In this document: positions 6,887 through 63,047 of the stretch, one piece after another | Layout: the number at the start of each line of letters is the position of its first letter | Numbering within the stretch: the stretch's first letter is position 1 | Assembly (NCBI GenBank): GCA_022606425.2 | Contig: JAHDVF020000074.1 | Location: 186,001-250,000 of the forward strand | Length of the DNA: 64,000 bases | Origin: Lepidostoma basale | Taxonomy: Eukaryota; Arthropoda; Insecta; Trichoptera; Lepidostomatidae | Direction: 5' to 3' | Notes under the pieces: generated by a model | What the model was told of the DNA's origin: nothing | Database searches by the model: none | The model's input: the letters and a program-made list of their open reading frames with translations, nothing else | Position numbers and translations under genes: made by a program

Positions 6887-7022
6887 TATTAATACGAATG
6901 AAAACGATAGTTTTCTAGAAGTTTTATTATATTCTCAGGCATTATCAAACATTTGATAATGCCTTAGAATAAAATATAATTAAACTTCTAGAAAACTAAC
7001 GTTTTCATTCGTATTAATTATT
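6887..7022. repeat. P1 palindrome, core deleted
   Basis: Long inverted repeat: both arms run from the centre CATTTGATAATGCCT outward through ACTTCTAGAAAACT and GTTTTCATTCGTATTAAT. Compared with 59481-59652 and 62852-63043, both arms lack the 20-26 bp that include the GAAACATGTC box. Confidence 0.85.
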
Positions 7023-7139
7023 TAATGTGGAGTTTTACATAATTGTTCAATAAAAAAACGTCAGATTCTTAATACATTTTTACAGAGAAATCAGTTGAAC
7101 CTAATGTATATAATTAGAAAATTATTAAAAATAATATTT

Positions 7140-7328
7140 AACATTTTTCCACTTAGTATAAAACACTTAATTTGAGTAAGTATAGCCAACTGGTTTCACT
7201 CTATAGCGAGCTTCCTTGGGGATTTAAATAGAGTGTTTATGTATAACTCTGAGAAAGCTAGCTACAGAGTGAAACCGGTTAACCTTCATACTCAAATAAA
7301 GTGGTTTATACTAAGGGGGAAAGTGTTA
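7140..7328. repeat. P3 palindrome with hammerhead-like boxes in both arms
   Basis: Inverted repeat with outer arms AACA(C/T)TTTCC..TTAGTATAAA. Plus arm: CTGAGAA (7249-7255), short stem-loop, GAAACCGGTT (7271-7280). Minus arm: CCAAGGA (7213-7219) and GAAACCAGTT (7188-7197). Stem I is weak (1-2 bp), so probably decayed. Confidence 0.8.
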
Positions 7329-8082
7329 AATTTTATTTTAAAATTTGTCAAACCACCAAGTAAAGTTATTATTTACATTTTGATTTGAAATTATTAATAA
7401 TGATAAAATAAAAACAAATATAAAATAAAAACATATATAACAGTCACATAATTACGGAAGAAAAATTTGATCTCACAGATGAATAATACATTATTAAAAT
7501 TATACATAAAAATAATCTTACAGTATAAGGAAATCTTAGAATTATGAAAATATTGCAGAACAGATGGATTCGTAATGCGAAATATATTCTTTAAACGTGG
7601 TTTATGACAATATATCAAGTTTATATAGAATTATAAGTTAAATATAAGTCGGTAGAAACAAAAATATGTTTGGAATAGTCACAAAGTGATCCAATCTCCA
7701 GAACTTAACACAACGTAAAAATAAATTAACTATTATTATCATTCTAAACGTATTTTATATTTTGATTTTCATTAACCGTTCACTTTGAAGCTTGTTATTG
7801 TGATCAAATTTATATGCTAATGTCGTTGAAAATTGTCCTTTGTGTTACAGGATGCGAATTTCTGATCCTTGAGCAAGTCTAGTCTACACCCCATTCCTCT
7901 TTTTGGCTTTTAAATTAAAATATATCTAAAAAGATACGTAATTAATTTTTTTATTACTTTATATATTTGCCCTGAGAATAACGCTTACATAAGATGTGAT
8001 TATTTTCATCTGTTTTTGTAAAAGCTTGCAGAAGAATTTTAAAGAAATAAGAATCAGTATGCTATGTATTTTTTTTAACAAA
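7329..8082. other. unique AT-rich stretch
   Basis: Nothing recognised. The open frame 7394-7618 is low-complexity. Confidence 0.4.
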
Positions 8083-8177
8083 GCGAGAGAAATTTGTCAG
8101 GAAAGAAAAGTGTGGCAGTCCATTATTTCTGTCTACCTCTTCAGGGAGTAGGTGTGATAATGAGTAAGTGAGTTAGT
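8083..8177 (+). mobile_element. LINE-1f 3' end, (TTAG)n type
   Basis: Only the last 90 bp (CAGGAAAGAAAAGTGTGGCA..., then GTGATAATGAGT) with a diverged TTAG tail; abuts the next copy. Confidence 0.8.
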
Positions 8178-8699
8178 TTTTGTACTGGACTGAGGTCCAA
8201 GAAATGGCCGTTCACAATGGAGTTCTGGTCCCAACACTTATGTATGGAAGCAAAGCATGGAACTGGCAGAAGACGGATAAGAGCAGAATAAATGCGGTAG
8301 AGATGAGGTCCCCAAGACGTACGTGTAGTAGAACGATGTGCAACAGAATCTCAAATGCTGATATTAGAAAGGAATGTAGAGCGAAATAAGGTATTATGAA
8401 CAAAATTATGATAGAATCGCTACATGGGTGAAGAAAGAATGGTTAAAAAAAATATACGTAAACGATGTAAATGGAGTGCGGAGTTAAGGTAGACCGAGGA
8501 AAACATGGCATGACCAAATTAATCAAATTTTAAAGGTTGGTAATGTTAGAAGCCGGAAGAATCGACGTGCGTGTATGACTCGCTGTATGAATGTAGAGGA
8601 ATCTAGAGAGGTATGTCAGGATAGAGTAGTGTGGCGGTCCATTCTCTCTGCCTACCCCTGCATCGAAACGGTGTAATGGTTTGTTGTTCTTGTTGTTGT
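8178..8699 (+). mobile_element. LINE-1f copy, (GTT)n tail
   Basis: Codes AVHNGVLVPTLMYGSKAWNWQK, NAVEMRSPRR, SNADIRKECR and on to the C-terminal RSRKNRRACMTRCMN motif, in shifted frames (an in-frame stop ends the first block at 8389). Ends GTAATGGTTTGTTGTTCTTGTTGTTG. Confidence 0.87.
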
Positions 8700-9599
8700 C
8701 TGAACTCCAAAGGTAGGGGTACAGTTATTTATTAAGGATTTTGAGGATAATTGGAACAAATTTAGCAGATCATTTAAAATGTGGCTTGTATACATTATAT
8801 ATACAAAATGATTTTGATTTAATATTAAGGAAACTTTCGTTACAAAAGAATACTTGTTAAGTTATTGGGAATTCGAAATATCAGTTATGATGATGTGTAA
8901 CATAAAAAGCATGTCTTGTAAACTGAAAAAACTTATTGCGATATCAAACACTTTTCATTTCTCGTGTAACCATAATGAAGATTTTGATGAACAGATTTAA
9001 ATGAAGATTTGCGCTTTTGAGGTGATTTCATCACCAAAACTAACCCTAAAAATTAGTATATTATTACTGTTATTATTATTTTTAAAGAAGCTTATCCTCT
9101 TAAATTTATTGCGAAATTGGTAAAATTAAAGACAGCGAAGTGTCGTAAATAATTAATTAGCTCTCGGAAGGTTTGTCTCGCATATCTCGCCCAATGTGTA
9201 CCGATACCAACCCTTCATAGATCTACCCTTTCTGATTTATTTGCCTGAGCCCCCGGGGAGGGGCGGGTGATTGGATCGCTCTCACTCGAGCGGAGATGTC
9301 CGTAGGTACACTCGAGGAACATTGCGTCATCGATCATTGAGGGTTAATTCTAATTATAAAACCAATTCGGCTTAAAATAGACAAGATAATCGTAGCACTG
9401 TTACAAGGATTTTAATTTACGCAAATCCCGACCAAATAGTTAATCTGTTTAAACAGACGACATTTTGAAATTCACAAGTCACGTAAAACAGTTAAGTTTT
9501 TTTTAAATAAGTGTTTATGAAAACTTTAAGATCAACAACAAACATTTCTTTACACAAAAATAACTATAGTTGACGCATTAAGTCATTTTGACACCATAA
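8700..9599. other. unique stretch with GC-richer island at 9180-9360
   Basis: AT-rich on both sides. The island (about 180 bp, with CCCCCGGGGAGGGGCGGG) has no coding frame and may be a regulatory or conserved non-coding segment. Confidence 0.4.
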
Positions 9600-9862
9600 A
9601 TTGGTGTTCTTGTACCGAACGTTATGTGTGGAAGAGAAACATGGAACTAGCAAAAGAAGGATGAAAGTAGAATATATGCATTAAAAAAGCAATCTCTAAG
9701 ACGAATATGTAGATCATCGAATGAATTTACTATTAAGTGAATACAGTGATTGAAAGTAGTTTTAACAAAATAATGCAAGGAACACTAAGATAATTTTGAC
9801 ACATGGAAATAATGAATGAAGGAAGAAAGGATAGTAAAGAAAGTAACTGTTAATGATTGTCG
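9600..9862 (+). mobile_element. LINE-1f remnant
   Basis: Heavily mutated copy (GGTGTTCTTGTACCGAACG, CATGGAACTAGCAAAAGAAGG, ACACATGGAAATAATGAATG) lacking the 3' end and tail; no open frame. Confidence 0.75.
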
Positions 9863-10151
9863 TTTTACGGCAATTGTAATACGATGAAAAAACAGATACT
9901 ATTAAACGTTAACAATGTGACAGGAATGAAATCTTTGGAGATATAAACCTTCGAAATATGCCCAAAAATTTTTACTCGTAATTGGAAAATACAATCGCTT
10001 AATTAATTTAAAATTAATCATTCAGGAATTCTATAGTGATAATGACTTATTTCTTCTATGTTCGCCATACTTTGTGTTGTAGATATTTTATATATTTCTT
10101 TATTTTATATACTTTGATAAAACACTCACTTTTTTAACAAATTAAAATTAA

Positions 10152-10195
10152 ATATCAAACATGTTTCGGACAACCCAACCCTACCTCAGTGATAT
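10152..10195 (-). ncRNA. hammerhead-like ribozyme motif (P4, minus arm)
   Basis: Minus strand order: ATATCA, CTGAGGT, A, stem-loop GGG..GTCC, GAAACATGT, T, then TGATAT. ATATCA and TGATAT pair perfectly (stem I, 6 bp); ACA/TGT forms stem III with no loop; predicted cleavage after GTT. Deviation: A9 of the core is T. Layout is that of a type I hammerhead; activity untested. Confidence 0.6.
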
Positions 10196-10216
10196 GATAT
10201 AGATATTTAAAATAAA

Positions 10217-10264
10217 GAATATCAATGAGGAAGGGCTGGGTAGTCCGAAACATGTTTGATGTTT
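10217..10264 (+). ncRNA. hammerhead-like ribozyme motif (P4, plus arm)
   Basis: GAATATCA, ATGAGGA, A, stem II GGGCT/AGTCC with a GGGT loop, GAAACATGT, T, then TGATGTTT. Stem I is 8 bp with two G-T pairs. C3 of the core is A, which would normally abolish cleavage. The stem I changes between the two arms (ATATCA/TGATAT and GAATATCA/TGATGTTT) keep pairing. Confidence 0.6.
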
Positions 10265-10316
10265 AATTTTAATTTTTTTTTAAAAGTGAGTGTTGTATAC
10301 AAAGTACATAAAAAAA

Positions 10317-10939
10317 GAAAAATGTAATGACTCATGTTTATCAAATTAATTTATTTTAACTCCAGAATACAGAATTATAATTGAATACAATAGGATAGCA
10401 GAAGCAAAAAAAAAACTTATAAAGAGTGCGAATGATAGGGGTATTTCACGCACGCCGGGTCTTACCTACAAGTTACACACAACGTTTATTAAGATCTTCC
10501 TTTAACAATTTTTCTTCAAAATGCTAGGATCCAACCTTTATTCAAATACGTCCTTAAGGCCTATTCACACGGGGTCACCGAACTGGTCGCAATCCTTTAC
10601 GACCGATAACGTTTATTCCCGCGCACAAAACAGTGTCTATCCAAGATTTAACTGAATAAAGAATCTGAAGGGAACCCCTTATTTTCTTTTTTACAGATAT
10701 ACTCAGCACACTTATCTCGGTATGATCATGACCGGAGTCATCATATGCAAAGAGCACAAATTTCAGGACTACGAGCAGCTGCTTCCATGAAGAAGCTCAT
10801 ACAGTCCAAACATAATTTTGAACAATTACAACACTATCACCAAGACTGTCAGAGCCATACAATGACTTTCTTAGAAATACGAAGAATCTACTGAAATGGT
10901 CCATTCTTTTGGCCGAAACACTATGATACTTAAACATTA
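10317..10939. other. unique stretch
   Basis: No gene recognised. 10440-10780 is somewhat GC-richer; the frame 10575-10757 has no domain. Confidence 0.35.
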
Positions 10940-11173
10940 TTACTGTTAATTTTTTTAAAACACTGTTATAATATCACAATTTCTGGTGATTCACCTAGAG
11001 TGTCGCGACAGATCTTTCGCCAACTGATGTTGGCATCATCAGGTGTTACAATAAACAGTTTATTGGAACGCCTGATGATGCCAACATCGGTTGGCGAAAC
11101 AGCTATTGCGACACCCTCGGTGAATAAAAAGAAATTGTAATATTATAAGTGTTTTAAATTTTAACAGTAATAT
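10940..11173. repeat. P2 palindrome with hammerhead-like boxes in both arms
   Basis: Arms read outward from AACA(G/C)..ACACCTGATGATGCCAAC to GACAC(C/T)CT..GGTGAAT and AACACTGTTATAATATC. Plus arm: CTGATGA (11072-11078), T, GCCAAC/GTTGGC stem II, GAAACAGCT (11096-11104). Minus arm: CTGATGA (11036-11042), stem II, GAAAGATCTGTC (end at 11007). Confidence 0.85.
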
Positions 11174-11403
11174 GAATCTACTTTAAAATAATATTGGACA
11201 GAGTGGGACCTTTAAAAATCTATACAACGTTTTATGTGTAATACTCGTGTTCTGATAAGGCTAAGCTGGACAAAAGAAACTGGTGAGAGCAAAAAGCGTA
11301 AGATTAAGGAGATTGAAACAATATCATCAAGGAATCCATACTCTACATGAAGTATTCGGCCATCTAAAGTAAATATAACATTTGAATATTTTTTTAATTA
11401 ACA

Positions 11404-11567
11404 TTATTTTTTCGCAACATTTTTTACACTTTTCAAAATCATATTTGGGAACACAGACGCCTTTCCTGAGTGGAGATTTTTTTTAAATTTCTACACTGAG
11501 GAAGCTCGTCTGTGTCCCGAAACATGTTTGTAAAAGTGCTATTTTTTTTATGAAAAAACAATGTTTT
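11404..11567. repeat. P5 palindrome
   Basis: Inverted repeat about a T-rich centre (11478-11490); arms share ACAGACG, ACACTTTT/AAAAGTG and AACATT.. ends. Followed to 11620 by the CACAAAGTGATGGCGA flank also seen near 34805 and, inverted, near 48890. Only the plus arm keeps the ribozyme-like boxes. Confidence 0.75.
11492..11532 (+). ncRNA. hammerhead-like motif (P5)
   Basis: TACA, CTGAGGA, A, weak stem II, GAAACATGT, T, TGTA. Stem I TACA/TGTA (4 bp) is kept in two diverged relatives near 57600 and 58530, although the cores there have decayed. Stem II is the weak point. Confidence 0.45.
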
Positions 11568-11689
11568 GGAAAAAGCTCTTCAAATATAATCCACAGCACA
11601 AAGTGATGGCGATTAAAGAAATAATGAGTATAATACTTTGGTATATAATTTCTAATTTCAACGTTTAAACATACAAAGATATGATAATT

Positions 11690-11936
11690 TCTTATTTTAC
11701 GTGGCTGAGTGTTAAGTACTTTAACTGCCACCCCGAAGGACCCGGGTTCGATTCTCGGCGATGTTAGTGTGATTGTCACACTGCCTTTGGTCTAGTGCAG
11801 AATTCATATGATCATAAAATGGTGATAGATTAGCTACCTATCTCATATCACGAGAATCATTATGATATCTTTACCCTATATATCGGTTTGGCTTGCGCTG
11901 TAATGATGTAAAGAGCGATTCAACAAGATTCAACAA
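11690..11936 (+). mobile_element. tRNA-like SINE, near full length
   Basis: A-box-like GTGGCTGAGTG, B-box GGGTTCGATTC (11742-11752), CGGCGATGTTAGTGTG, then body with AAAATGGTGATAGATTAGCTACC and the 3' part TTGGCTTGCGCTGTAATGATGTAAAGAGCGATTCAACA. The best-preserved copy in the window. Confidence 0.82.
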
Positions 11937-11939
11937 AAA

Positions 11940-13724: not shown

Positions 13725-13985
13725 GTTGTTGCGTTGGCAGTATATAATGGAGTTCCATTGCCAACCTTTATGGAAGTAAAGCTTGGACCTGACAAATGAA
13801 GGAGAAAAGTGTGATAAATGCCGTAGAAATAAGATCACTGAAAACAATGTGCGGGAAAACGATATATGATAAAATACCAAACAATAAACTAAGAAAGAAA
13901 TATAACGCAGGTGATTGCATCATAAGTAATATTAAAAAAAGATTTCCGAGATTTTTTGGACATGACAGAACGAATGGACCGGTTT
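13725..13985 (+). mobile_element. LINE-1f internal remnant
   Basis: Codes NAVEIRSLKTMCGKTIYDKIPNN and FFGHDRTNG, the mid-C-terminal block of LINE-1f, without the 3' end. Part of an open frame at 13796-14068. Confidence 0.75.
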
Positions 13986-14084
13986 TTCGATGCCAGCTAG
14001 CTTGGCGAAATAGGTTGCTTCCGAAAAAAATAGAAAAAGTGGAAGTAGTTAAAAACTTATATGATTAAATATTTACAAGAATTT

Positions 14085-15185: not shown

Positions 15186-15916
15186 TTAACTAACTAACAT
15201 CAAGCTGTCTCCCCGAAGGGGTAGGCTGAAATAATGCACCGCCACACTGCTATTTCCAGAAATACTACTGTTACTTCCACAATATTCATACATAATGTCA
15301 TGCACGCATGTAAATTTCTCCGATTCCTCGCGTGGCTACCGTTAAACATTTTTTGAGATAATCAAATGATACTGAAATCTCTTGATGGAAGTTCATTTTA
15401 AATAATAATTATATAACACGATGTTTTTTTTTAACTATTTCCACTTTTGTCTATATTTCGACAGCGACCGGTTTCGCTAGGCTCGCTGGCATCGACAGAC
15501 TGGTCTAATCGGAAACCAGTCTGTTGATGCCAGCGATACTGGCGAAACCGGTCCCTATCAAAATAAAGACAAAATTGGAAGTTGTTTAAAAAAACATCGT
15601 TTTATTTAATTATTAATTAAATATTTGATTTATTTGATCGTGCCACGTATTCCTCGATCTTCATCTATTTCCAGTTCCGTTAACATCGTAAACATATACT
15701 TTTTTACCATTCTTTCCATTTATCCCAAACCATTTCAATTATCCTTTCATTATTTCGTTCATAACACTATCATTCGAATTGCATTCATATATATTTTCGA
15801 ACGACATTATCATGGACAGATTTTCCACACATTCGTCTAAAAGATCTAATTTGTACTGCATTTATTCTACTTTCATCTTTTTTCCAGTTTCATGCGTCAC
15901 TTGAATACATAAGGGT
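15186..15916 (-). mobile_element. LINE-1f copy split by a P6 palindrome
   Basis: (TTAG)n tail at the left (15186-15200), stop and C-terminal block to about 15352, then foreign DNA 15353-15617. The copy resumes at ATATTTGATTTATTTGATCG (DQINQIL region) and continues to MYSSDA-like sequence near 15916. Confidence 0.85.
15353..15617. repeat. P6 palindrome inserted in LINE-1f
   Basis: Inverted repeat with arms AACGATGTTTTTTT..AACTA..TTCCA(C/A)TTTTGTCT. Plus arm: CTGTTGA (15521-15527), T, GCCAG/CTGGC stem II, GAAACCGGTC (15544-15553). Minus arm: CTGTCGA (15492-15498), GAAACCGGTC (15466-15475). A6 of the core is T in both arms. A second copy lies at 57640-57885 and shares the left flank GATAATCAAATGAT..CTGAAATCTCTTG, which therefore belongs to the element. 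Confidence 0.85.
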
Positions 15917-17359: not shown

Positions 17360-17455
17360 ATTCTTTTATTTTATTTTTTATGTACTTTGTATACAACACT
17401 TACTTAAACTTAAAGTAAGTAAGTGTATACAAAGTAGGTATATAAAAATACAATA
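17360..17455. repeat. P4 palindrome reduced to outer arms
   Basis: TACTTTGTATACAACACTTACTT / AAGTAAGTGTATACAAAGTA with a short AT centre. No ribozyme boxes remain. Confidence 0.75.
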
Positions 17456-18303: not shown

Positions 18304-18538
18304 TAACTGTTAAAATTTAACACGCTGTTATAATATCAATATTTCTTTGTATTCACCGAGTGTCGAGACAGCTGTTTCGTCAACCGATGTTGGCATCATC
18401 AGGTATTACAATAAACTTGTTTATTGTAAGTAACACCTGATGATGCCAACATCGGTTGGCGAAACAGCTGTCGCGACACTCTCAGTGAATAATAAGAAAT
18501 TGTGATATCATAACAGTGTTTTAGATTTTAACAGAAAT
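18304..18538. repeat. P2 palindrome with two intact hammerhead-like cores
   Basis: Plus arm: CTGATGA (18437-18443), T, GCCAAC-ATCG-GTTGGC, GAAACAGCTGTC (18461-18472). Minus arm: CTGATGA (18396-18402), T, GCCAAC..GTTGAC, GAAACAGCTGTC (18367-18378). All core boxes are canonical, but stem I pairing is poor (1 bp plus scattered). The LINE-1f copy 18541-19083 landed at its right edge. Confidence 0.85.
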
Positions 18539-18540
18539 TA

Positions 18541-19083
18541 TAACTAACTAACTAACTAACTAACCATCACGCCGTCTCCCCGTAGGGGTAGGCAGAAAGA
18601 ATGGACTGCCACACCTTTCTTTCCTGACATATTTCTCTCGCTTCCTCAACATTCATACATCGTGTCATGCACGCGCGTCGATTTCTCTGACTCCTCACAT
18701 GGCCGACATTCAATATTTGATTTATTTGATCGTGCCACGTTTTCCTCGGTCTTCCGAATTTTTTTTACCATTCTTTCTTCATTCATTCTTTCCATATGTC
18801 CAAACCATCTTAATGATCCTTTCATTATTTTGTTCATGACGCCATCATTCGCACCGCATTCACTTCTTATATTTTCATTCGACACTCTATCATACACAGA
18901 ATATCACACATTCGTCTAAGAGATCTTATTTCTACTGCATTTATTCTACTTTCATCCTTCCTTTGCCAGTTCCATGCTTCGCTTCCATACATAAGGGTCG
19001 GTAGAAGAACACCATTGTGCACTGCCATTCTAGCTTTTTTGGATAGGTTTTTGTTTGCGATGACAACTTTAAGTGCACCATTC
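18541..19083 (-). mobile_element. LINE-1f copy with 10-bp target duplication
   Basis: (TTAG)n tail at 18541-18565. Codes the block from VNGALKVVIANKNLSKKARM through HNGVLLPTLMYGSEAWNWQ and IRSECGANDGVMNKIMKGSL to the C-terminus, with frameshifts. Flanked by ACAGAAATTA at 18531-18540 and 19084-19093. Confidence 0.92.
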
Positions 19084-21312: not shown

Positions 21313-21847
21313 AGTTCAATTAGTTGTTGTATTTCACTGCACAATATTTAATAAAACAAATGAATTATTTTCAATGAAACTGAGGGTACAAGTATATAAA
21401 TATGTGTTGGTGCCTTTATATTTCCCAATGCCATTGTCCAGTCCAACTAAATCCCGTGCGATTGTGTTTACCTCGTTGAGCTTGAAAAATACTTACCGCC
21501 CTTTAAGGATAACATTTTCTATTTTCAGCTGTAATATGGCGACCCATTTCGGGCTTACAACGATATTATTTTTGAACCATTTTGCCGATACAATATTCTC
21601 ATTTTTTTTCTAAAAACTATTCTCAAGAGAACTGTAGTAAAGTGAAGGCAAAATAGAAGCAGAAAGCTTATTTTTAGATACGTTATTTGTAATATTAAAT
21701 GAATGAAAATTATTCATTCTCCAAATATATAAACACATTTGTTTTGTTTAACCTATGTTAATACCACATTATGGACAATCGATTATAAATATTTTAAATT
21801 TTCGTATGAAGCATTCACTTCGTAGAAAGACTTTTTTAATTTTTTAA
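21313..21847. other. unique AT-rich stretch
   Basis: Frame 21374-21613 has no domain; nothing else seen. Confidence 0.35.
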
Positions 21848-22072
21848 ATATTTGTATTTAAAATAAAAACACTGTACTTAGTTTTTTACCACTATGCGGT
21901 TATTTTAATTGCCGACTAGTTTCGCTTGTACCCAAGCTTCCTCAGGGTTTTGTAATAACTTTATTACGAAGCCCTGAGGAAGCTTGGGTACAAGCGAAAC
22001 TAGTCGGGAATTAAAAACACCGCATAGTGGTGAAAAACAAAGCACAGTGTTTTTATTTTTTTTATTTTAAAT
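21848..22072. repeat. P3 palindrome with two intact hammerhead-like cores
   Basis: Near-perfect arms (AAATAAAAACACTGT..CTTTGTTTTTCACCACTATGCGGT and its complement). Plus arm: CTGAGGA (21974-21980), A, GCTTG-GGTA-CAAGC, GAAACTAGTC (21996-22005). Minus arm has the same boxes at 21914-21945. Confidence 0.9.
21899..21960 (-). ncRNA. hammerhead-like motif (P3)
   Basis: Minus strand: GTTATT, ACAAAA, CC, CTGAGGA, A, GCTTG/CAAGC stem II, GAAACTAGTC, GG, CAATTAA, AATAAC. Inner stem I CC/GG and outer stem I GTTATT/AATAAC flank an internal loop, the stem I style known from natural type I hammerheads. Core boxes canonical. Confidence 0.6.
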
Positions 22073-23282
22073 AAAAATAATAAAAAAAATTATAAATATT
22101 ACAGTCCTAGGTTTTGGTTGCATTATTACTTTTCCATATTTATAACATTTAAATGAATAAGCAGTGCTTGTTCTAGAAAATAATATAAAAGTAATATAAG
22201 AAATCAGGTTTTTAATAATTATAAGATTTATTTACAGTTCTTGCTAGTATTTTAATGGATTGATTCACAATGATATCTAAAATTTAAATATAAACGCTGC
22301 AACTAATATTCGCGATCGATTCGAAAAAAATATGAAACAAGAAAGTAACTCTATAAGTTGGGTTTTAATTTGAATTATAAAATACGAAAAATATGGGTTT
22401 TCTGCTTAGATTTTAAATCTGTCGGAACATTTATGCACTTACGTCGCTGGTAGTTGTTAAGTCGAAATACGATATAGATTATTCAGCAACTAAAACCTAA
22501 GATTAGCAATTAAATAAACATAAATGGTGACCTTTTATGTTAACAAGAGTCGTAATCCTAAATATATAAACTTGATTGGAAATTTCTTAACCAAAACACA
22601 CATAATTTTTTTTTTTAATGTCGTTATTCTGTCTTCATAGTTATTAAAAATCTCGTCAAGTTTCCGTGAGATTAGGAAATATACAAGGGTGTTAATGGGA
22701 ATCGCACTTAACCCTTTTAATTTGCTAGGATGTTGAAGTATTTATTTGGTAACAGAATCTGTGAAGAGTCATATTAACACCGCCACTTAAAACTTCAACA
22801 CCCTCCTAATGGATACTTATTGATGAGCTGATAATTGTTGGAACATGTGGTTTGTGACAAAAAAATACTAGACAAACTACACTTAAAATGGATGGGTTCG
22901 TGAACCACGATTATATTTGAGATTATTTAAGTGCTTAAAAATATACCAGATGATTTATTATCTCTTGTGGGAATGACATATTTCGCCATGCTAAGGCTTT
23001 ATAATTTTTTTTATGTGCTACGTCATACCCCTTTGACATTGACTATTACTTGAGAGTACGCGTCTCTGTCTCTGGCAGCTCGAAACAGCTCCTTAAAGTT
23101 TTTTTAAACCAATCCAGTCCTTTTATTGTGGAGCCTGGAGATTCGTTTCCTGCCAGGACCATTATCTTTATAATTACGAAGGCAAAACTATACGTTTTCA
23201 TTTGCATGAATGATTTATTGATGTAAGGGTGGTGGCTTAGCTCAACTGATAATTTGCGAACTGGTAGATCAAACATGTATCA
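22073..23282. other. unique AT-rich stretch
   Basis: No gene. 22970-23005 is a P1 fragment on the minus strand (GGCGAAATATGTCATTCCCAC). Frame 23046-23276 shows no domain. Confidence 0.4.
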
Positions 23283-26668: not shown

Positions 26669-27287
26669 TACAAGTGATTTATATTACTATATAATCATAT
26701 AAAATCCAAAATTTTATTTTTGGGGTTTTCTAGTAAAATCGCACAACTACTTGTGTTGTATTCAAAAATATTAATATTTAGGTTATCTTTACTTAATATT
26801 TTTTTAATTTTGCTAATTTATTTTATTATAAATGATGTCCTTCTATACAGATTTAAACAATATAATTCTTATAGATATTTTAAATACGTTAAAAACCCTG
26901 TATAATTAAAATGTTTATAAAATAAAACAAACAATTAAAATTATGTGTAGTATTGTGAAGCAAGTATAGCAAACAACTGATATTACAGCATATCAAAATC
27001 CAAGTATTTCTTAAAATCCAATAAAATCTAAACAATCGATATCTAATTGCTTGTGTTAGATGCAGCTCCCGTGACAAATTTGTGTATTGATATTTTTAAA
27101 TACAAATTAATTATAACTAATACAAAATAATATAAAATCAATGGAAAAACTTATAATAAAAATACTTTGAGGATATTTTAAAAAGTTGGGAATTAAATAT
27201 TATATAAAAGTTGGTAATGGTAATGTATTATTATTATGTATAAAAGTTGGCAATTATACATGTTTTATAAACTTATATCTATTAAAT

Positions 27288-27840
27288 ATTACATTGTTTT
27301 GGCCGAAACACTATGATACTTCAACATTATTAATATTAAAATTTAAAACACTGTATTAATAATTAATAATACCTTTCACTTGTGTTCCATTTTCTTAGTA
27401 ATGTAATATACTTCCTTCTAATGTTTATCGTCCCTAATTTATTTTATGACTCATCGCACTTGAATTAATTCCATGTATTATTGTACTTTATAATTACTGG
27501 TTTTCCCACATTTATTATGTTTGCTTATAATAATATTATTTAAGTTTCTTCACCTAATTGACAATACCCTTTCATTTCTTGTATGTATAATTGTCCCTTC
27601 TAATCGCTGTTTTCTCCACCTTTGTTGTATTATACTTAATTTAAACTATCCACTAACCATACTAATGAGTTTTTTACCCTATAAATAGTAAATTTTATTA
27701 ATTTGTTACTTTAGTTTATTGTAACACCTAATGATGCCAACATCGGTTGGCGAAACAGCTGTCGCGACACTCTCACTGAATAAAAAAAAAATTGTGATAT
27801 TATAACAGTGATTTAAATTTTAACAGTAATAAACTTGTAT
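27288..27840. repeat. P2 element with spread arms
   Basis: Left outer arm 27288-27355 (GGCCGAAACACTATGATACTTC, AACACTGTATTAAT) and right arm 27715-27840 with CTAATGA (27728-27734), T, GCCAAC-ATCG-GTTGGC, GAAACAGCTGTC (27752-27763) are separated by about 360 bp of AT-rich DNA that replaces the centre and left core. Confidence 0.7.
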
Positions 27841-31854: not shown

Positions 31855-31975
31855 TTGAAACACCTGATGATGTCAACATAGGTTGACGAAACAGCTGTCG
31901 TGTAAAATAAAAATGCAATTGTGATATATAAAACAAAGTTTTTTTAATTTAACAATATATAATTATGTGTTTGTA
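31855..31975 (+). repeat. P2 element, single arm (not palindromic)
   Basis: From GAAACACCTGATGATG through GCAATTGTGATATATAAAAC to AAGTTTTTTTAATTTAAC; same subtype as 15960-16125 but with one arm only. Confidence 0.75.
31860..31903 (+). ncRNA. complete hammerhead-like motif (P2)
   Basis: ACAC, CTGATGA, T, GTCAAC-ATAG-GTTGAC, GAAACAGCTGTC, GTGT. Stem I ACAC/GTGT 4 bp, stem II 6 bp, stem III ACAG/CTGT, cleavage triplet GTC, all core residues canonical except one extra T before stem II. The most complete single copy in the window. Confidence 0.65.
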
Positions 31976-32509: not shown

Positions 32510-32729
32510 ATACTTAGGAAATTGAAAATAACTTTGTTTAATCCACTAATTATTTCAAAAATATTTAAAAACACGATACCTCCATCTACAGGTGTAAAAA
32601 TATAATATGATTATTATATTTTTACACCCGAAGATGGAGGAGAAGTATCCTCCGAAACGTGTCGTGGTTTTTAATATTTTTTTTAATAATTAGTGGATTA
32701 AACAAAGTTATATTCAATTTCCTAAGTAT
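32510..32729. repeat. P7 palindrome
   Basis: Long arms (ATACTTAGGAAATTGAA..AACTTTGTTTAATCCACTAATTATT and inverse) around TGTAAAAATATAATATG. Plus arm: CAC, CCGAAGA (32628-32634), T, GGAGGA/TCCTCC stem II, GAAACGTGTC (32654-32663), GTG. Minus arm reads CTGTAGA and has lost the GAAAC half. The two arms together imply an ancestral CTGAAGA. A related right flank is at 60590-60695. Confidence 0.85.
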
Positions 32730-35274: not shown

Positions 35275-35735
35275 TTGTAGTACTTCCAAAACGGTGGATA
35301 CGTGTAACATAAATTAAATAAACACAAAAGTCCGGATCGTCCATGTCAACATGTGCAACATCGAAAAAAACATTATGTGTTATTACATTATGTGCTAAAT
35401 TAAAACAACGGTGGATTAGTGGAACATAAATTAAATAGTCAATATGTGCACCATCTAAAAAGAACATTTTTGTCTTAAATTATTTTTATTTTGTTATTTT
35501 ATTTTATATCATTGTATTTTATATTATTTGTTTTAGATTTATTTTGTGGGTGTCAGACGATTGAAGTGTGCGCAGGAGATGCCTATTGGTGGCGATGAGG
35601 TTCGCAACCCATCACACCGCGTCTCCCGCGGGGCGAAAAGAGAAGGTAGGAGTGCCGCATCAGTAAAAGTGTGACAGTCCATTCTTTCTGCCTACCCTTT
35701 TAGGGAGACGGCGTGATGGTTAGTTAGTTAGTTAG
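35275..35735 (+). mobile_element. SINE with LINE-1f tail
   Basis: Internal duplication of GTGGAT(A/T).GTG(T/G)AACATAAATTAAATA at 35293 and 35411, then GGAGATGCC..GGTTCGCAACCC, hairpin GGAGA/TCTCC, and the LINE-1f end TTAGGGAGACGGCGTGATGG plus (TTAG)4. Confidence 0.82.
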
Positions 35736-36967
35736 TAGTACTACCTAACAGTCGTCAATATTCAAAGTAAGTAAATGCAATGGGCACCCATTTTCTATAA
35801 AAAATCCCGTGATGTTTTCACCATTACTTAAATTATACTCGTACTCGTATGTTCGAAATAAAATAAAAATAAAAAAACGATTGCATGACACTCGGGGACC
35901 CAGTCAGTCAGCAGAATAGAGAAGAAAGGTAAGCCATCCGCTCAGCCACGTTAAAACCGGTAGCGAATTTTCTAATATAATAATTTGAAAACTCTTTTCT
36001 AGAAATTGGCTGGTTATTGCGCTTTCTTACTTTGACTATGAACTACTCTACGATCTTAGGGGGAACTATAATCCTGCAAAATCCCATTCCAAAGTCAATT
36101 TCCTATATCATGCTCTCCCCTTGTAAAAGCTTTCGATAAACTTTCGGCGCATATTTTATTTTGAAAATATTTTATATTCAATTAAAGAACTAGTTTGGTA
36201 TGAAATTAATTCTATATTCAAATTCGTTGAACTTGGACAATAATGTTATAATACTTGAATATTTTGGTAATAACCTCTCTCACCAAGCATATGATATTTA
36301 ATGTTGTGATACCACCGTTTTATATAATAACAAAATATTATATGTTATTTATTATTGTACAATATACAAAAAAGGATGACATAATGAATACACAAATTCT
36401 TACATTCATTTTCTTTCTCAACTTTTCAATTTTATATTAAATATCTAGATAATAATAAAAAAATAGTATGCCAGTCAATTTCAGTAGAAATGGGTGAGCA
36501 ATCGATACAATGAAAAACTCGTATTTAATAAGTTCGATACATTATTTATATTGACAAATGTAATATAGAAATATATCTTATTCATTTGAATTACGAGTAG
36601 ACGCAATTGATTAAATGTATGAAAGTCAATTCATAATGTGTGTGTATTAAATTCGAAATGTTTTTTTTTATGTTTTCTCGAAATGTTTATTATTTTTATG
36701 CAAAATAAATAATTCGACAAACTTAAGGCATTAACGTTGTGTAATTAAAAAAAGAAAAAAATATTTTATAACTTTAAACACTGTTTTTTATACTTTTAAG
36801 GTTATATTTTTTGATATATTTCGAAAGTTTTAAACGAAAGTTTATGTAGTACTTCCGATGGTTAAGATGTGAATCCTTTGAAAACTGTCGAGAAAATAAA
36901 CTCAAAATTGGAAGAGAGTTGTTTTAAATCACACAAAAAAGTCATATTAATAGTTACGCACACGTAA
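35736..36967. other. unique AT-rich stretch
   Basis: Nothing recognised. Confidence 0.4.
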
Positions 36968-47935: not shown

Positions 47936-48879
47936 TACGTTCAGAAGACTCTTGACTTTGGAAAGTATCTTGTATTGCTAACGACAAATCATCTTTCGTG
48001 CGTTCCTGGTATTATATATTTATTATATTTTACCTGTTTTCAATAGACGGCTTAAACTATATTGTGTTTTGTAATATATTTTGTGATTTAAAAAAAATAT
48101 ATACAATAAACTACGATATAATGATACTTTTGATATAATTAATATTCACCTAAACGTGATATCGCCTGCGTATTTTTAATTACTTCCCACCTTTGAAATG
48201 CGTATATGGGCTATGACGCGAAAAAAAAAGCTCATAAACATCATTATTAATTATCGTGTTTGGTCCCTCACACCCAGCGCCCACGTACGTGATAAAAATA
48301 AACATGGTATTTTATCCCATAGGAAGGCGGTGATGAGTACACAATCGCATATTTCAAGCGAAATTATCGCCTCTTCGATAGCGAAACTATGCGGAATATA
48401 CGGGGCAAGGCGCATTCCCGATTCAGTACTGCTCCAATAAATTATTTATTAAGAATTTTGGCTTTGGTCCACAAAAATATTATTGGATAAGAAGAACTAT
48501 AACTCTATGCTATAATATTTTATATATGTATAACTTATTTTATGTACAAATCGTCGAAGACAAAGAAATCATTTTCGTATACTCGGACTACGAGTATGTA
48601 TTTGCGTACAGAATAATCTTTTAATATTGAATACATATAGCAACGTTTAAAGAAATTTACTTTGACTGACTTTTTTTGACGTAAGCGGTTCAAAAAACAA
48701 CAAATAAAATTGTGGAAGATATTAAAAATCTTCATGTGAAGCACTCACTTTATAGTTTTTTCTTTGATTTATGATTATAGAACCTTAAACACACCAGTCT
48801 AATGTCTCTTGTAAGCCTACAACTACAGAAAGTTTTGTTTTGTTATTTGATTTTCCTAATATGGTAGGGTAAAATTTCC
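47936..48879. other. unique stretch with GC-richer island 48190-48440
   Basis: Island has an 80-residue frame with no domain; looks more like conserved non-coding DNA. Rest AT-rich. Confidence 0.35.
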
Positions 48880-49140
48880 ATTTCTTCTATGTTCGCCTTC
48901 ACTTTGTGTCGTGGATTCATATTTGAATAAAAATAATTATACTTTGTATTACAACACTTTTTATTTTCACTGAACTCCTACTCATTTCAAGTAACCTTTA
49001 TCAATGTATACAATTTTAACGTTAATTTTAACGTCAAAAATGTATACATTGATAAAGGTTACGCGTAACCGAAACATGTCTGATTTCAGTGAAAATAAAG
49101 TGTTGTAATACAAAGTATAATTATATTTATTCAAATGCAA
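48880..49140. repeat. P4-type palindrome
   Basis: Arms with ACTTTGTATTACAACACTTT..ATTTTCACTGAA and inverse. Plus arm: TTGATAA (49038-49044), A, GGTTAC/GTAACC, GAAACATGTC. The minus arm has lost GAAAC. Left flank TTCGCCTTCACTTTGTGTCGTGG is the P4/P5 flank motif inverted. Confidence 0.8.
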
Positions 49141-49203
49141 ATTCTATTACTAAACGACTTTGCTATTATTAGTCTAAGGAAAATCAAAATAATGAATCCA
49201 TTC

Positions 49204-56329: not shown

Positions 56330-56432
56330 TCGTCACATTTGATAATGCCTTAGAAGGGCAAAACATGTCATTCCTATAAAATATAATAAAACTTTTAGAA
56401 AACTGACGTTTTCATTCGTATTAATTAAGAAT
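56330..56432 (+). repeat. P1 single arm
   Basis: CAT, TTGATAA (56339-56345), T, GCC..GGC, AAAACATGTC, ATTCCTATAAAATATAATAAAACTT and GTTTTCATTCGTATTAAT. The first base of the GAAAC box is A. Lies in the putative intron. Confidence 0.8.
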
Positions 56433-57640: not shown

Positions 57641-57885
57641 GATTTTACTGAAATCTCTTGAGAAGTTCATTTAAAATAATAATTAAATAAAACGATTTTT
57701 TTTAACTACTTCCACTTTTACCTTTATTTCGATAACAGACTGGTGCCAGTAAGCCTGGCAAAACCGATGCCAGCGAGCCAGCGAGCCAGCGAGCTTGGAG
57801 AAAGCGGTTGCTCTCAAAATAAAGACAAAAGTGAAGGTAGTTAAAAAAACACCGTTTTATTTAATTATTATTAAATAAAATGATG
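57641..57885. repeat. P6 palindrome, copy 2
   Basis: Same flank (AATCAAATGATT..CTGAAATCTCTTGA) and outer arms as 15353-15617. The centre has an expanded GCCAGCGA x3 (57769-57792); the GAAAC boxes are altered (GCAAAACC, GAGAAAGCGG). Confidence 0.78.
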
Positions 57886-57889
57886 TTAT

Positions 57890-58285
57890 TTTTATAATGC
57901 AGTAGAAACGAGATGATAGAGTGTCGAATGAAAATGTAAGAAGTGAATGTGGTGCGAATGATAGTGTTATGAACAAAATAATGAAACGATCATTAAATGG
58001 TTTGGACATATGGAAAGAATGAATGAAGAAAGAATGGTAAAAAATATATATGTTTACGATGTAAATGGAACCAGAAATAGAGGTAGACCGAGGAAAACGT
58101 GGCGCGATCAAATAAATCAAATATTGAATGTCGGTCATGTGAGGAGTCAGAAAAATCGACGCGCGTGCATGAGACGATGTATGAATGGTGAGGGAGCGAG
58201 AGAAATATGTCCGAAAAGAAAAGTGTGGCGGTCCATTCATTCTGCCTACTCTTTCGAGGAGACGGCGTGATGGTTAGTTAGTTTA
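57890..58285 (+). mobile_element. LINE-1f copy, (TTAG)n tail
   Basis: Open 58010-58270: MERMNEERMVKNIYVYDVNG, RGRPRKTWRDQINQILNVGH, RRACMRRCMNGEGAREIC and SIHSAYSFEETA-stop, the best C-terminal frame of the family; TGA (58268-58270) directly followed by TGGTTAGTTAG. Confidence 0.92.
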
Positions 58286-58287
58286 GT

Positions 58288-59454: not shown

Positions 59455-59655
59455 GATGTAAAACTCCATATTTAAATAATTAATACGAATGAAAACATCC
59501 GTTTTCATTTTATGGGAATGACATGTTTCGCCCTTCTAAGGCATTATCAAATGTATCAACATTTGATAATGTCTTAGAAGGGCGAAACATGTCATTACCA
59601 TAAAATATTATAAAACTTCTAGAAAACTGACGTTTTCATTCGTATTAATTAATCA
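59455..59655. repeat. P1 palindrome with both arms
   Basis: Plus arm: TTGATAA (59563-59569), T, short stem, GAAACATGTC (59584-59593). Minus arm: TTGATAA (59544-59550), GCC..GGGC, GAAACATGTC (59520-59529). Outer arms GTTTTCATTCGTATTAAT. Left flank GTTTCTTGATCAATGATGTAAAACT. The left arm lacks the TTATAAAACTTCTAG part. Confidence 0.87.
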
Positions 59656-59714
59656 AAGCATCATTTTTGTATAGAACAAGTCGCTCGAACCCAATAATTG
59701 CATACAATTTGTTT

Positions 59715-59890
59715 TAGCTATTATATTGATTTTCATGACGTGTGATAGGTAGCTTATCCATTTTAAAATTTATTGTTACGTGAATTCTCCACCAAAAGAA
59801 ATACAATGTGACTATCACACTGCCATCGCCGTCAATCGAAACAGGGACCTTCGGTGTAGCAGTCATAGCTGTTTCCACTCTACCACGAGA
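59715..59890 (-). mobile_element. tRNA-like SINE
   Basis: Minus strand GTGGAAACAGCTATGACTGC, B-box-like GTTTCGATTG, CGGCGATGGCAGTGTG, GAATTCACGTAACAATAAA and CACGTCATGAAAATCAATATAAT. Confidence 0.75.
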
Positions 59891-61290
59891 ATCGTCAATA
59901 TTACGAACTACACCTATAAACGTAATAACGAAGTCAAAATTTGACAACAGTTTTTTTTTATTTAAACAGAAAAGTAATCTCGCATTCATTTGTTTTCTTA
60001 TGTTTATAAATAACGTGTGATTTTAATTGACTTATAATCTTAATAAATTAATAAAATTCTCTGAATTAATTCTCAATAAATATCTTAATTATTACTAGAT
60101 ATAATTAAAAGCAAAATAACCTTTCTACGAATATTTTGATAAAAAATAAAAAATCAAATAAATAAATAAAAAATATATAATCAAATTATTTTTAAGTAAT
60201 TAACAACGTAAATGTTTTATCGATATGCGTTTTGCAACATTGTATTTCTTAACAATTTTTTTATTGTGGAATATGCCCTTGCATCTTAATTATTGTTTAG
60301 AATAAATAAAAATAGGACCCCTTTATCGCGTTAATTATTTTATTCTGCTCCAATTATCATGGTATACAAACGAAAACGTGTTTAATTCTCGATATATATG
60401 ATAATACCCGAGCAACATGAAACACGTCACTCCAATGTATTACTACAATTTCATCGACATTAAATATAAACCCTGTGTGTGTATTAAAGTTCTCAGTTAA
60501 ATTGTATTTTTTAAACATAAAATTTATTGCACTATGAAATTGAAAAATAACCCTCTATATTTTCCGCTTAATTAAATATTAAATATTAACGACTTGTCGT
60601 GGTATTAAATATTTATGTGGAAAATAAACAGCGTTATCATTCAATTACAAAGTATAATACAATGGAATTTCCACAGTGTTCATGCCTTAACTTTTAGTAA
60701 AATGATATTTATTTATAAGAAATGATCAAATGTTTAATAAAATAATGATTTAAAATAAATTTAAAATTATTTACGTACATATGTATGCTTAAGGGAAGAT
60801 GAAGTCTATTTCACGAATGTATACTCGTAGATACCTAATAATATTATAGAGAGGCATTTGGCTAATCCCCCTCATATATTAATCACCCTTTGGACATTGA
60901 TAAATATAAGGGTTGAACCTGGATCCTCAACCAAAGGATTTGAAAAAGTATCCCATCAATTGATGAGGGACTTTTTCAGGAGAAAGTGGTCCAGCTTACA
61001 GCGGACAGGCGAGTCGGTAGGGATTAGCCGATATTACCTCCTGCTGCTCTATATTGAGGGCTCAGAAAAAGATCCTGGTATCAGTTGATAAAAAGTCCTC
61101 CTAACGTTCCATTCAAAGACTCTTGACCGTAATTACCACTGGGCAACCAACACGTGATATATAGTATAAATGATAAACCCGATCCAAAGGACATCATCCT
61201 TTTTAATATTCTAAATTAATCAAACGCATATAAATTTTAGACACATTAAAATATATATAAAAAATCGCACGTGTGAGATTATTTATATGT
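59891..61290. other. unique AT-rich stretch with palindrome remnants
   Basis: 60365-60445 has ATGATAA, T, stem, GAAACACGTC, a possible decayed hammerhead-like arm. 60590-60695 matches the P7 right flank. 60930-60985 is a hairpin AAAAAGT..CCATCAA / TTGATGAGG.ACTTTTT; the frame 60858-61088 over it is not convincing. Confidence 0.45.
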
Positions 61291-61450
61291 ATCACTAACT
61301 AACTAATTAACTAAACATCACGACGTCTCTCTTAAGGGATATGCAGAAATATTTGATCGTCCAAATCGTAATCTTCTGACGTACTCTCGTGTCTTCATAT
61401 TCATACAACGTGTCAGGTCCCACGTGGATTTCTCTGACTCTTTTCATCAA
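61291..61450 (-). mobile_element. LINE-1f 3' end
   Basis: ACTAACTAACTAATTAACTAAACATCACGACGTCTC to CACGTGGATTTCTCTGACTC; diverged. Confidence 0.8.
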
Positions 61451-61669
61451 ACCTTCGAAACATGACGGAAAACATTAACTCGTGTAGAAAATGTGGAAAA
61501 ACACTGTTATTTTTATTAACTGTTTAAATTAAAAAAGGGTTATAATATAATATCATAATTTAATTATATGAAAATGTCGCGATTGCAGTTTCATCATCAT
61601 GTGTTGCAAACAACTGTTTGTAATGTAAGCGTTAAAAACCACAAAAAAGTTCGTCAATAAAATATTACG

Positions 61670-61840
61670 CAAAAGAATAGCAATGAAAACGTCTGTTTTA
61701 GAAGTTTGATTATGATTTATGGGAACGACATATTTCGCCTTTCTAAGGCATTCTTAAATTTCAATTAACATAACAATCCTATAAAGCATAATTTAACTTC
61801 AAGAAAACAGACGTTTATTGAAACGTATTAATAATCTAAT
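61670..61840. repeat. P1 palindrome, decayed
   Basis: AATGAAAACGTCTGTTTTAGAAG and inverse CTTCAAGAAAACAGACG; minus arm GGCGAAATATGTCGTTCCC. First box lost in both arms. Confidence 0.72.
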
Positions 61841-61845
61841 AAGGA

Positions 61846-62353
61846 GCTTTATATAAAAAAATAAGTCTCGAACAAATTTGGTATCTATTACAAAAATGAA
61901 TATATTCTTAAGTACGAGTACTTATTCACATTACGAATTTCTAACCAGATACACGTGATAATCTATGCAAAACGCTTTGAAATTATAGGCTACGCGAATC
62001 ACGTTTATAAGAAACAACGCTTATAAAAATAAAACATTTCACAATCATGTTAAAAAAAAACTTATTGCCAGGCAGCGAAAATTAAACAAAAAGGGGAAAT
62101 TAACATCAGTAAAATATGCAAATGAATCGTTTCGAATTCCGCGGCATTAACTAAACACATATTAATAGGAACAATTAAGCCGGTAAAACACCTTTTCAGA
62201 TTACGTGACTACCCCAATGAGGAAGTAATCGGAGGGGAACTGCGAAAAAAATGAAGTCTCTCTCTGTAACAGGATGCGAGTAAAATTGTTTACAATTATT
62301 TTGGATAAAATTAGGTCTCTTTCTTATCATTTTTTCTGTAGATCGGGCGATCT
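61846..62353. other. unique stretch
   Basis: Slightly GC-richer at 62180-62280; no gene. Confidence 0.4.
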
Positions 62354-62364
62354 GTTAAGAAAAT

Positions 62365-62791
62365 AGCCCCAATCTGGGGCTATGCAGCTTCGAGTCACAT
62401 ACAAAAACTCCAAATCCTGCAAAATAAGGCTATCCGTTTATCGCTTGGTGCGCCTTCATGGACCAGGATTACACAACTGCACCTAGAATCGGGAATCCCG
62501 ATGATAGATGAATTCATTCTGAAACTTGCCGAACGTTTTTACAAAGGACTCCCTTCACATCCCAACCCCACAATAAAAGACCTCTCTAATTACGACCCAA
62601 ACACTTCCAGCCGCCACAAGCGCCCAAAATCGATTCTCCTTCAGAGGAACACTCCGGGCCACACAAATCATGCCCCCGAATAAACTAACAACCCACCAAA
62701 TCACCTTCCAACAATGTTCCCATCAGACGTAAGAGGAATAGCCACATGAGCTGAACCTCTGTAAGCCAGAAGATCCAAGTCCCAAGTCCAA
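62365..62791 (+). mobile_element. Jockey-like LINE 3' end with 11-bp target duplication
   Basis: Open from 62366 to the TAA at 62682-62684: PIWGYAASSHIQKLQILQNK, IRLSLGAPSWTRITQLHLES, IPMIDEFILKLAERF, KRPKSILLQRN. WGYA followed by LQ..QNK..R...GAP and L.IP...EFI is the C-terminal pattern of Jockey-clade LINEs. A short 3' UTR then ends GATCCAAGTCCCAAGTCCAA. Flanked by GTTAAGAAAAT at 62354-62364 and 62792-62802. 5'-truncated, frame intact, so relatively recent. A second piece is at 5384-5612. Confidence 0.9.
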
Positions 62792-62814
62792 GTTAAGAAA
62801 ATGTATCAATTAAT

Positions 62815-63047
62815 TGTTTCTTGAACAATGATGTAAAACTCTATATTAAATAATTAATACGAATTAAAACGTTAGTTTTCTAGAAGTTTTATTATATTTT
62901 ATGGGAATGACATGTTTCGCCCTTCTAGGACATTATCAAATGTCATTTTTGAAATTGATAATGCCTTCCTTAGAAGGGCGAAACATGTCATTCCCATAAA
63001 ATATAATAAAACTTTTAGAAATTTGACGTTTTCATTCGTAATAATTT
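62815..63047. repeat. P1 palindrome, best-preserved member
   Basis: Plus arm: TTGATAA (62955-62961), T, GCCTTCCTTAGAAGGGC, GAAACATGTC (62980-62989). Minus arm: TTGATAA replaced by TTGATAA with a variant stem (62933-62939), GAAACATGTC (62909-62918). Arms continue ATTCCCATAAAATATAATAAAACTT, CTAGAAA, GTTTTCATTCGTA. Left flank GTTTCTTGAACAATGATG. Confidence 0.88.

What the first reader, a model, noticed from the sequence alone, without database searches (positions are those of the whole stretch)
6887..63047. About twenty palindromic loci share a hammerhead-ribozyme-like core
Loci with unrelated outer arms (P1-P8) repeat one order of boxes: CTGANGA-like, one extra base, stem-loop, GAAAC, a short self-complementary run, then T or C. 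That is the conserved core order of a type I hammerhead (CUGANGA, stem II, GAAA, stem III, NUH). Stem II pairs in most loci although its sequence differs between families (GCCAAC/GTTGGC, GCTTG/CAAGC, GGAGGA/TCCTCC, GTCAAC/GTTGAC). Hammerheads are known from Penelope-like elements and retrozymes (established); membership of these loci is my inference.
Basis: partly seen in the sequence, partly recalled or inferred. Interest (0 to 1): 0.88.

Follow-up and report, generated by a model that had tools for sequence, protein, structure and literature searches.

The report
Paired retrotransposon ends carrying hammerhead-ribozyme motifs
The palindromes are tiny head-to-head insertions of Penelope-like jumping genes, each arm carrying the start of the element's RNA with a hammerhead-ribozyme-like fold, and their regular ends record how this poorly understood class of element inserts itself.

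Summary
The window has 38 scored core copies at about 25 loci, 10 with both arms. Genome-wide, a family-independent core pattern gives 24,155 hits against 1 in the reversed control. Stems I and II covary between families, stem III is mostly self-complementary (dimeric hammerhead), and the C3-G8 pair switches to U3-A8 (17,930 copies) with far fewer mixtures. The loci belong to Penelope-like elements (PLEs): GIY-YIG/reverse-transcriptase elements in the same unnamed 769-Mb genome sit head-to-head and their arms end in the same motif plus a "tail". In 17 of 18 loci of one family (F8) one arm has the long tail and the other the short one; 16 of 18 share a flanking string of at least 10 nt. Short F8 arms begin 28-30 nt downstream of a TATA box: they look like cDNA of the 5' end of PLE mRNA, made once per target strand and joined. 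PLE hammerheads, inverted copies, tails and two-strand priming are published, so the kind is known. The one-long-one-short pattern, the start-site boundary and a young family with a broken core (A6 to U) are the informative additions. Cleavage is untested; no Rfam threshold is reached.

The parts
6888..7018 (.). F4 palindrome (U3-A8 class); both arms lack the stretch holding GAAAC and stem III
7152..7315 (.). F7 palindrome, cores at 7219(-) and 7249(+)
10121..10294 (.). F6 palindrome, cores 10189(-)/10225(+); family with 7-bp stem I
10938..11172 (.). F1 palindrome, cores 11042(-)/11072(+); left arm long tail, right arm short tail
11402..11570 (.). F6-like palindrome, core at 11496(+), weak
13984..14060 (+). 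single F8-like arm
15418..15600 (.). F8 palindrome, cores 15498(-)/15521(+); both arms start at ACCAGT; same family as the elements L034, L037, L038
15974..16086 (-). F2 arm, core 16039(-)
18307..18534 (.). F1 palindrome, cores 18402(-)/18437(+); left long tail, right short tail
21783..22145 (.). F3 palindrome, cores 21945(-)/21974(+), candidate 12-nt flanking repeat at 21782 and 22089
27728..27820 (+). single F1 arm
31860..31903 (+). F2 hammerhead core; sub-threshold match to Rfam RF00163 Hammerhead_1
32510..32729 (.). F9 palindrome, core 32628(+); family found downstream of GIY-YIG domains elsewhere in the genome
33360..33734 (.). F10-like palindrome (TTGANAA type), read by eye against L039
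39600..39800 (-). F7 arm, core 39736(-)
48846..49188 (.). F5 palindrome (U3-A8 class), cores 49004(-)/49049(+)
56339..56430 (+). F4 arm extending upstream past the usual 5' boundary, with a TATATAAT stretch
57675..57872 (.). degenerate F8 palindrome with an internal GCCAGCGA repeat
59477..59651 (.). F4 palindrome (U3-A8 class), cores 59550(-)/59563(+)
62884..63014 (.). F4 palindrome, cores 62939(-)/62955(+)

Best explanation
The loci are short insertions of several families of Penelope-like retroelements. Each arm, read outward, is the 5' end of a PLE mRNA: a few to about 20 nt, a minimal type I (dimeric) hammerhead, then a tail of roughly 60-110 nt. I infer that the PLE protein cut both target strands and started reverse transcription on each from one of two internal sites (about 98 and 141 nt from C3), usually one site per strand. 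Both cDNAs ran to the 5' end of the RNA, just before the hammerhead, and their 3' ends were joined with filler, giving a head-to-head palindrome flanked by a short target repeat. Longer copies (up to a full RT-EN ORF) would arise the same way from RNAs that contain a downstream copy of the same region. Shown here: the motif and its covariation; the link of four families to GIY-YIG ORFs (for F8 with RT); head-to-head order; for F8 the flanking repeats, tail asymmetry and sharp 5' boundary. Inferred: the transcription start site, two-strand priming in this genome, self-cleavage, and the extension to families without a seen ORF.
For: Core excess over the reversed control, genome-wide. Stem I, 11 families: pairs 1.1, 1.2, 1.3 formed in 11, 9, 8, against permutation means 6.8, 3.7, 3.6; the sum was not reached in 20,000 permutations. 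Stem II pairs 10.2-10.4: 70 of 75, 68 of 73, 59 of 72, shuffle means 39.4, 37.9, 37.0; stem III hexamer self-complementary in 64 of 75 (76 of the 100 strings listed were typed). C3/G8: CG 24,155, UA 17,930, CA 1,990, UG 1,836. PLE link: L037 ORF of 758 aa has RVT_1 and GIY-YIG; L034 arms 989 nt, 99%; motif on the EN strand downstream of GIY-YIG in 13 of the 23 loci examined. Tail asymmetry 17 of 18 and flanking repeat 16 of 18 F8 loci. 5' boundary: 17 of 41 F8 arms start at -6, 28-30 nt after TATA(TA)AA in long copies. Published precedents: PMC3846280 (passages), PMC11167929 (section 3).
Against: No hammerhead family reaches Rfam's gathering score. F8, a young family, has A6 changed to U. Stem II pair 10.5 shows little excess (36 of 70, shuffle mean 29.2). 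The minimum-energy fold shows the double hammerhead for 1 of 5 arms tried (F6). F1 locus L007 has two long tails. 8 of 23 GIY-YIG loci showed no motif in the stretch held. Arms of one locus are no more alike than arms of different F8 loci. The ORF link was found for F4, F8, F9 and an F7 relative, not for F1, F2, F3, F5, F6, F10.
Confidence: 0.82

Rival explanations
1. Same PLEs, but the palindrome forms by self-priming: one cDNA folds back and copies itself (the reading offered for Adineta vaga PLEs in PMC3846280), not by priming on both target strands.
For: Many centres hold short inverted or iterated filler; the A. vaga authors favour self-priming.
Against: A copied second arm should repeat the first arm's tail; instead the two tails differ in 17 of 18 F8 loci and end at two narrow points. 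A purified PLE protein cuts and extends both strands in vitro (PMC11167929).
Confidence: 0.15
2. Foldback/MITE-like DNA transposons: the palindrome itself is the mobile unit with terminal inverted repeats moved by a transposase.
For: Short palindromes, thousands of copies, variable families; F1, F2, F3, F5, F6 and F10 were not directly linked to an RT here.
Against: F8 arms continue into RT/GIY-YIG ORFs and F9, F4 and an F7 relative lie downstream of GIY-YIG domains; centres differ between copies of one family; arm ends are unequal; stems covary as an RNA.
Confidence: 0.04
3. The motif is a protein-binding RNA stem-loop or DNA signal with only a chance likeness to a hammerhead.
For: F8 keeps the stems but has lost A6; insertion in vitro does not need a catalytic hammerhead (PMC11167929); no Rfam match over threshold.
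Against: The invariant residues are those of the hammerhead core, N7 is free (A 30, T 19, C 13, G 13 of 75), C3-G8 switches to U3-A8, and that switch is known from natural hammerheads and active in vitro (PMC3088659 section 8).
Confidence: 0.12

Closest known systems
PLE-associated minimal type I hammerheads (Cervera & de la Pena 2014; Lunse et al. 2017; neither text held; seen as described and cited in PMC7761336, passages)
   Same: Minimal type I core with a weak or missing helix III, thought to act as dimers, located in PLE pseudo-LTRs
   Different: Here one extra base between A9 and stem II is usual (38 of 41); there is a large U3-A8 class and a numerous family with A6 to U. An extra core base is known from a viroid hammerhead (JBC 2001 276:34586, title only, in the reference list of PMC6155905); its position there is recalled
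Adineta vaga Penelope elements with inverted pLTRs (PMC3846280, passages)
   Same: Head-to-head inverted pLTRs, optional 31-bp tail on one of them, 8-10 bp TSDs, palindromes at the junction
   Different: Here many copies are reduced to arms of about 100-150 nt, cores run to tens of thousands, and one long plus one short tail was seen in 17 of 18 F8 loci
Poseidon of Anolis carolinensis, PAc (PMC11167929, section 3)
   Same: RT + GIY-YIG, hammerhead at the pLTR-ORF junction, two internal RT start sites whose interval is the tail, cleavage and extension of both strands
   Different: PAc copies are described as tandem; in vitro no start-site difference between strands was seen, whereas in F8 the two sites are used once each per insertion in 17 of 18 loci
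Metazoan type I hammerhead retrozymes (PMC7229834, passages)
   Same: Type I hammerheads, dimeric action where helix III is weak
   Different: Retrozymes are described as short tandem repeats with canonical hammerheads; these loci are inverted pairs, four families of them tied to PLE ORFs

Membership tests
Hammerhead ribozyme (type I, dimeric/minimal) | Core order CUGANGA - stem II - GAAA - stem III - NUH | tested here: met
   F8 deviates at A6, F4/F5/F10 carry U3-A8, and an extra base follows A9
Hammerhead ribozyme (type I, dimeric/minimal) | Stems I and II supported by compensatory change | tested here: met
   some families are related (F1/F2, F7/F7b), so the 11 are not fully independent
Hammerhead ribozyme (type I, dimeric/minimal) | C3-G8 tertiary base pair | tested here: met
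   copies are not independent; families: 7 CG, 3 UA, 1 CA (F7, by majority of 3 arms)
Hammerhead ribozyme (type I, dimeric/minimal) | Score over Rfam gathering threshold | tested here: not met
   best seen 15.2 bits vs 34. The extra base and the lack of a monomer stem III would be expected to cost score
Hammerhead ribozyme (type I, dimeric/minimal) | Self-cleavage 3' of H17 | not testable with these tools
   -
Penelope-like element | One ORF with RT and GIY-YIG endonuclease | tested here: met
   L037 758 aa, RVT_1 1.4e-13 and GIY-YIG 6.6e-5; for window loci by family identity (F8), no such ORF in the window (tblastn)
Penelope-like element | Inverted pLTR, tail on one side, TSD | tested here: met
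   17 of 18 (tails) and 16 of 18 (flank string of at least 10 nt) F8 loci (no shuffled control for the flank strings there; L034 and L038 were controlled)
Penelope-like element | Phylogenetic placement of the RT among PLEs | not tested
   no tree built
Retrozyme | Direct tandem repeats of 150-450 bp with hammerheads | tested here: not met
   same-family neighbours within 1.5 kb: 27 head-to-head pairs (1 spurious), 5 tail-to-tail, 4 direct
MITE / foldback DNA transposon | Transposase partner, fixed palindrome moved as a unit | tested here: not met
   for F8: variable centres, unequal arm ends, RT-EN continuation; F1 centres vary too; a partner protein was not sought for F1, F2, F3, F5, F6

The most novel reading that the evidence does not exclude
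The self-complementary hammerhead is first of all a template-dimerising device. Two PLE mRNAs held together by stem III (double hammerhead), bound by a dimeric PLE protein, offer two RT start sites, one to each cut target strand, so that an insertion is as a rule a head-to-head pair with one long and one short tail. Catalysis is dispensable: a young family with about 14,000 copies (F8) has lost A6 but kept stems I, II and the self-complementary stem III.
Probability: 0.2. Interest if true: 0.8.

Novelty: new member of a known kind. Interest (0 to 1): 0.55.

Why it matters
The role of hammerheads in Penelope-like elements and the way PLEs insert are open questions in the papers seen (PMC7761336 calls the role a mystery; PMC11167929 leaves later steps unvalidated). 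This genome holds tens of thousands of copies, many of them short insertions with both ends, the joint and the target repeat readable, so models of PLE integration can be tested by counting. The one-long-one-short tail pattern, the start-site boundary and the A6-to-U family are sharp constraints. The palindromes also drew sub-threshold microRNA matches, a warning for annotation.

Tried and rejected
Rfam at E up to 10 over the whole window gave 23 sub-gathering matches, mostly microRNA families lying on the palindromes, and no hammerhead; with 131 nt given, RF00163 appeared at 15.2 bits, E 0.36; 301 nt of the F6 locus L026 gave 33 matches, none a hammerhead. The GIY-YIG hits L029 and L031 are, by my reading, UvrC-like proteins in bacterial-looking contigs, not PLEs. 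The direct-repeat search for TSDs beat its control clearly at L034, L038, L028 and, in the window, only at 21945/21974; L037 lies in a TA repeat; the other window and sample loci did not. Arms within a locus are no more alike than arms between F8 loci (0.981 vs 0.979), so common templating could not be shown that way. Folding gives the double hammerhead for F6 only, of five arms. Literature searches for a PLE start site at the hammerhead and for template dimerisation showed no title or abstract stating them; only the open library was searched and the listed papers were not all read.
Full report
What was checked. The window is an AT-rich stretch (GC 28-37% in 4-kb steps) of an unnamed 768,829,600-base, 1572-contig genome (C1359:186001-250000) with a mariner-type transposase and a reverse transcriptase fragment. 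Palindromes were listed by script (26 raw regions) and printed. Reading outward from a centre, an arm carries [C/T]TGAN[G/A]A, one extra base (A or T), stem II, GAAAC, a self-complementary run ending in T, then usually T or C. With nine seed cores, the window + 20 evenly spaced 10-kb stretches of three contigs gave 100 hits against 1 in reversed DNA; 38 are in the window. 53 of the 100 fall into 27 head-to-head same-family pairs within 1.5 kb, one of them (61757/62955) spurious; 5 neighbours are tail-to-tail and 4 direct.

Is it a hammerhead? Stem I was tested by permuting 3' flanks among 11 families: positions 1.1-1.3 are paired in 11, 9 and 8 families against means of 6.8, 3.7 and 3.6, and the summed score was never reached in 20,000 permutations. 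Three rows (F9, F7b, F10) were typed from loci; F9's own majority string also pairs at 1.1-1.3. Some families are related, so the 11 are not fully independent. Stem II and stem III were tested on 75 distinct strings, from 76 typed of the 100 listed: 70 of 75, 68 of 73 and 59 of 72 pairs at 10.2-10.4 against shuffle maxima of 54, 51 and 47; 10.5 shows little (36 of 70, mean 29.2, maximum 41); 64 of 75 hexamers are self-complementary. These strings are related, so the numbers overstate independence. The pattern YTGANRAWGN{6,20}CGAAACNNGTH gives CG 24,155 (reversed control 1), UA 17,930 (4), CA 1,990 (0), UG 1,836 (7). In the lists shown, most C-A and U-G strings look like single changes from CG or UA families; a U-G family (TTGATGAAGG...CCTTC) may exist. 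U3-A8 is a known natural variant, active in vitro (PMC3088659 section 8).

Against. No Rfam hammerhead passes the gathering score; at 31860-31903 RF00163 scores 15.2 of 34. Family F8, 14,221 places within 3 mismatches of a 39-mer, reads CTGTCGA, that is A6 to U; A6C is reported as slow. No activity was tested.

What the loci are. Of 62 scored GIY-YIG matches in the genome (150 of 541 candidates were scored), 10 lie in five close outward-facing pairs. L034 holds two 989-nt arms, 99% alike, 66 nt apart, each with the GIY-YIG end of an ORF, then the F8 core and a tail. L037 has a 758-aa ORF with RVT_1 and GIY-YIG and an opposite, shorter arm; L038 has arms alike at 99.8% over 1.43 kb that start at different ORF positions (residue 137 and 441 of the L037 frame). 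L035 and L036 are head-to-head too. In 23 further GIY-YIG loci examined (L035 and L036 among them), the motif lies downstream on the endonuclease strand in 13 (nine F9, two F8, one F4, one F7 relative); 8 show none, L039 only a weak partial one and L033 a separate F1 palindrome; on the other strand, apart from second arms, motifs of other families occur in L039, L042 and L044. F8 is the family of window loci 15418-15600 and 57675-57872, F9 of 32510-32729, F4 of 59477-59651 and 62884-63014. No PLE ORF was found in the window itself.

Ends. For 18 F8 loci (5 found by GIY-YIG, 13 of the 17 pairs I read from the list), one arm ends at position 138-141 from C3 and the other at 91-103 in 17 of 18; L068 gives 123 and 101. 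The reference stops at 141, so longer matches could not show. A common flank string of at least 10 nt is present in 16 of 18 (L037 lies in a TA repeat, L066 in an A-rich stretch; L065 has 6, L068 none). For F1 the same two end points appear: L005, L076 and both window loci have one end at 98-102 and one at 138-141, L006 90 and 137, L003 73 and 139; L007 has two long tails; other F1 or F2 loci in that run are truncated or diverged.

5' boundary. Of 41 F8 arms, 17 match the long copy for exactly 6 nt before C3 (ACCAGT), 7 for 1-11 other lengths, and 17 for 26 to 380 nt. In long copies TATATAAA begins 30 nt (TATAAA 28 nt) upstream of that point; in F4 (L054) TATAAA is 29 nt upstream of ACAT, and 13 of 17 F4 arms match for 0-6 nt; in F10 (L039) TATAAG is 31 nt upstream of the A of TCAGT. 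The base before ACCAGT, where it is not the long-copy T, is G in 12 of 19, as a copied cap would give, but centres are partly palindromic so this is only a hint. Of the 17 F8 pairs read, 9 have less than 50 nt between cores. A genome-wide count of the boundary was planned: 3,815 exact places reach ACCAGT; the matching count for longer arms did not complete.

Mechanism. In PAc (PMC11167929, section 3) the protein cuts and extends both strands, starts internally at two sites whose interval is the tail, is predicted to be a dimer, and inserts RNA without a catalytic hammerhead. Put onto these loci: start near the 5' end of an mRNA, copy about 100-140 nt to its end, do this on both strands, join. 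That yields the observed minimal palindromes, which would lack the TATA box and so be dead on arrival (inference). A. vaga PLEs show the same head-to-head order with self-priming as the authors' preferred cause (PMC3846280, passages). Unequal tails speak for two primings, not conclusively. The bolder reading, that the self-complementary stem III pairs two templates for the two strands, rests on the same facts plus the loss of A6 in F8.

Limits. Only part of the genome could be read; 13 of the 18 F8 loci were picked from exact core matches, so they are young; single-armed copies were not inspected; no tree, no expression data, no named host.

Noticed in passing
L029, L031 (G000:C102, C729): Contigs of the assembly carry long UvrC-like ORFs (my reading) with bacterial-looking neighbours, so the assembly probably contains bacterial (symbiont or contaminant) DNA.
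   Followed up: no
window 6888-7018: Both arms of this F4 palindrome lack the stretch holding GAAAC and stem III, as if both were copied from one already deleted RNA; insertion then did not need the core.
   Followed up: partly
window 17383-17436, 27286-27409: Tail-only palindrome or fragment resembling, by eye, the outer arms of F5/F6 and F1, as expected for reverse transcripts that stopped before the hammerhead.
   Followed up: no
L065 (G000:C16:385700-386130): Centre filler is built of several short direct and inverted copies of the arm start (ACTGGT/ACCAGT), suggesting repeated template switching at the joint.
   Followed up: no
window 998-1723, minus strand: Mariner-type transposase fragment (PF01359, 8.4e-26).
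   Followed up: no
window 18534-18919, 35480-35875; L004: LINE-like 3' ends with a GTTAGTTAG tail; some PLE arms (18307-18534, L004) end directly at such a tail.
   Followed up: no
one search list, e.g. G000:C31:1153803, C36:129693: A possible further family TTGATGA-A-GGTNTAAGCCTTC with a U3-G8 wobble in the core.
   Followed up: no
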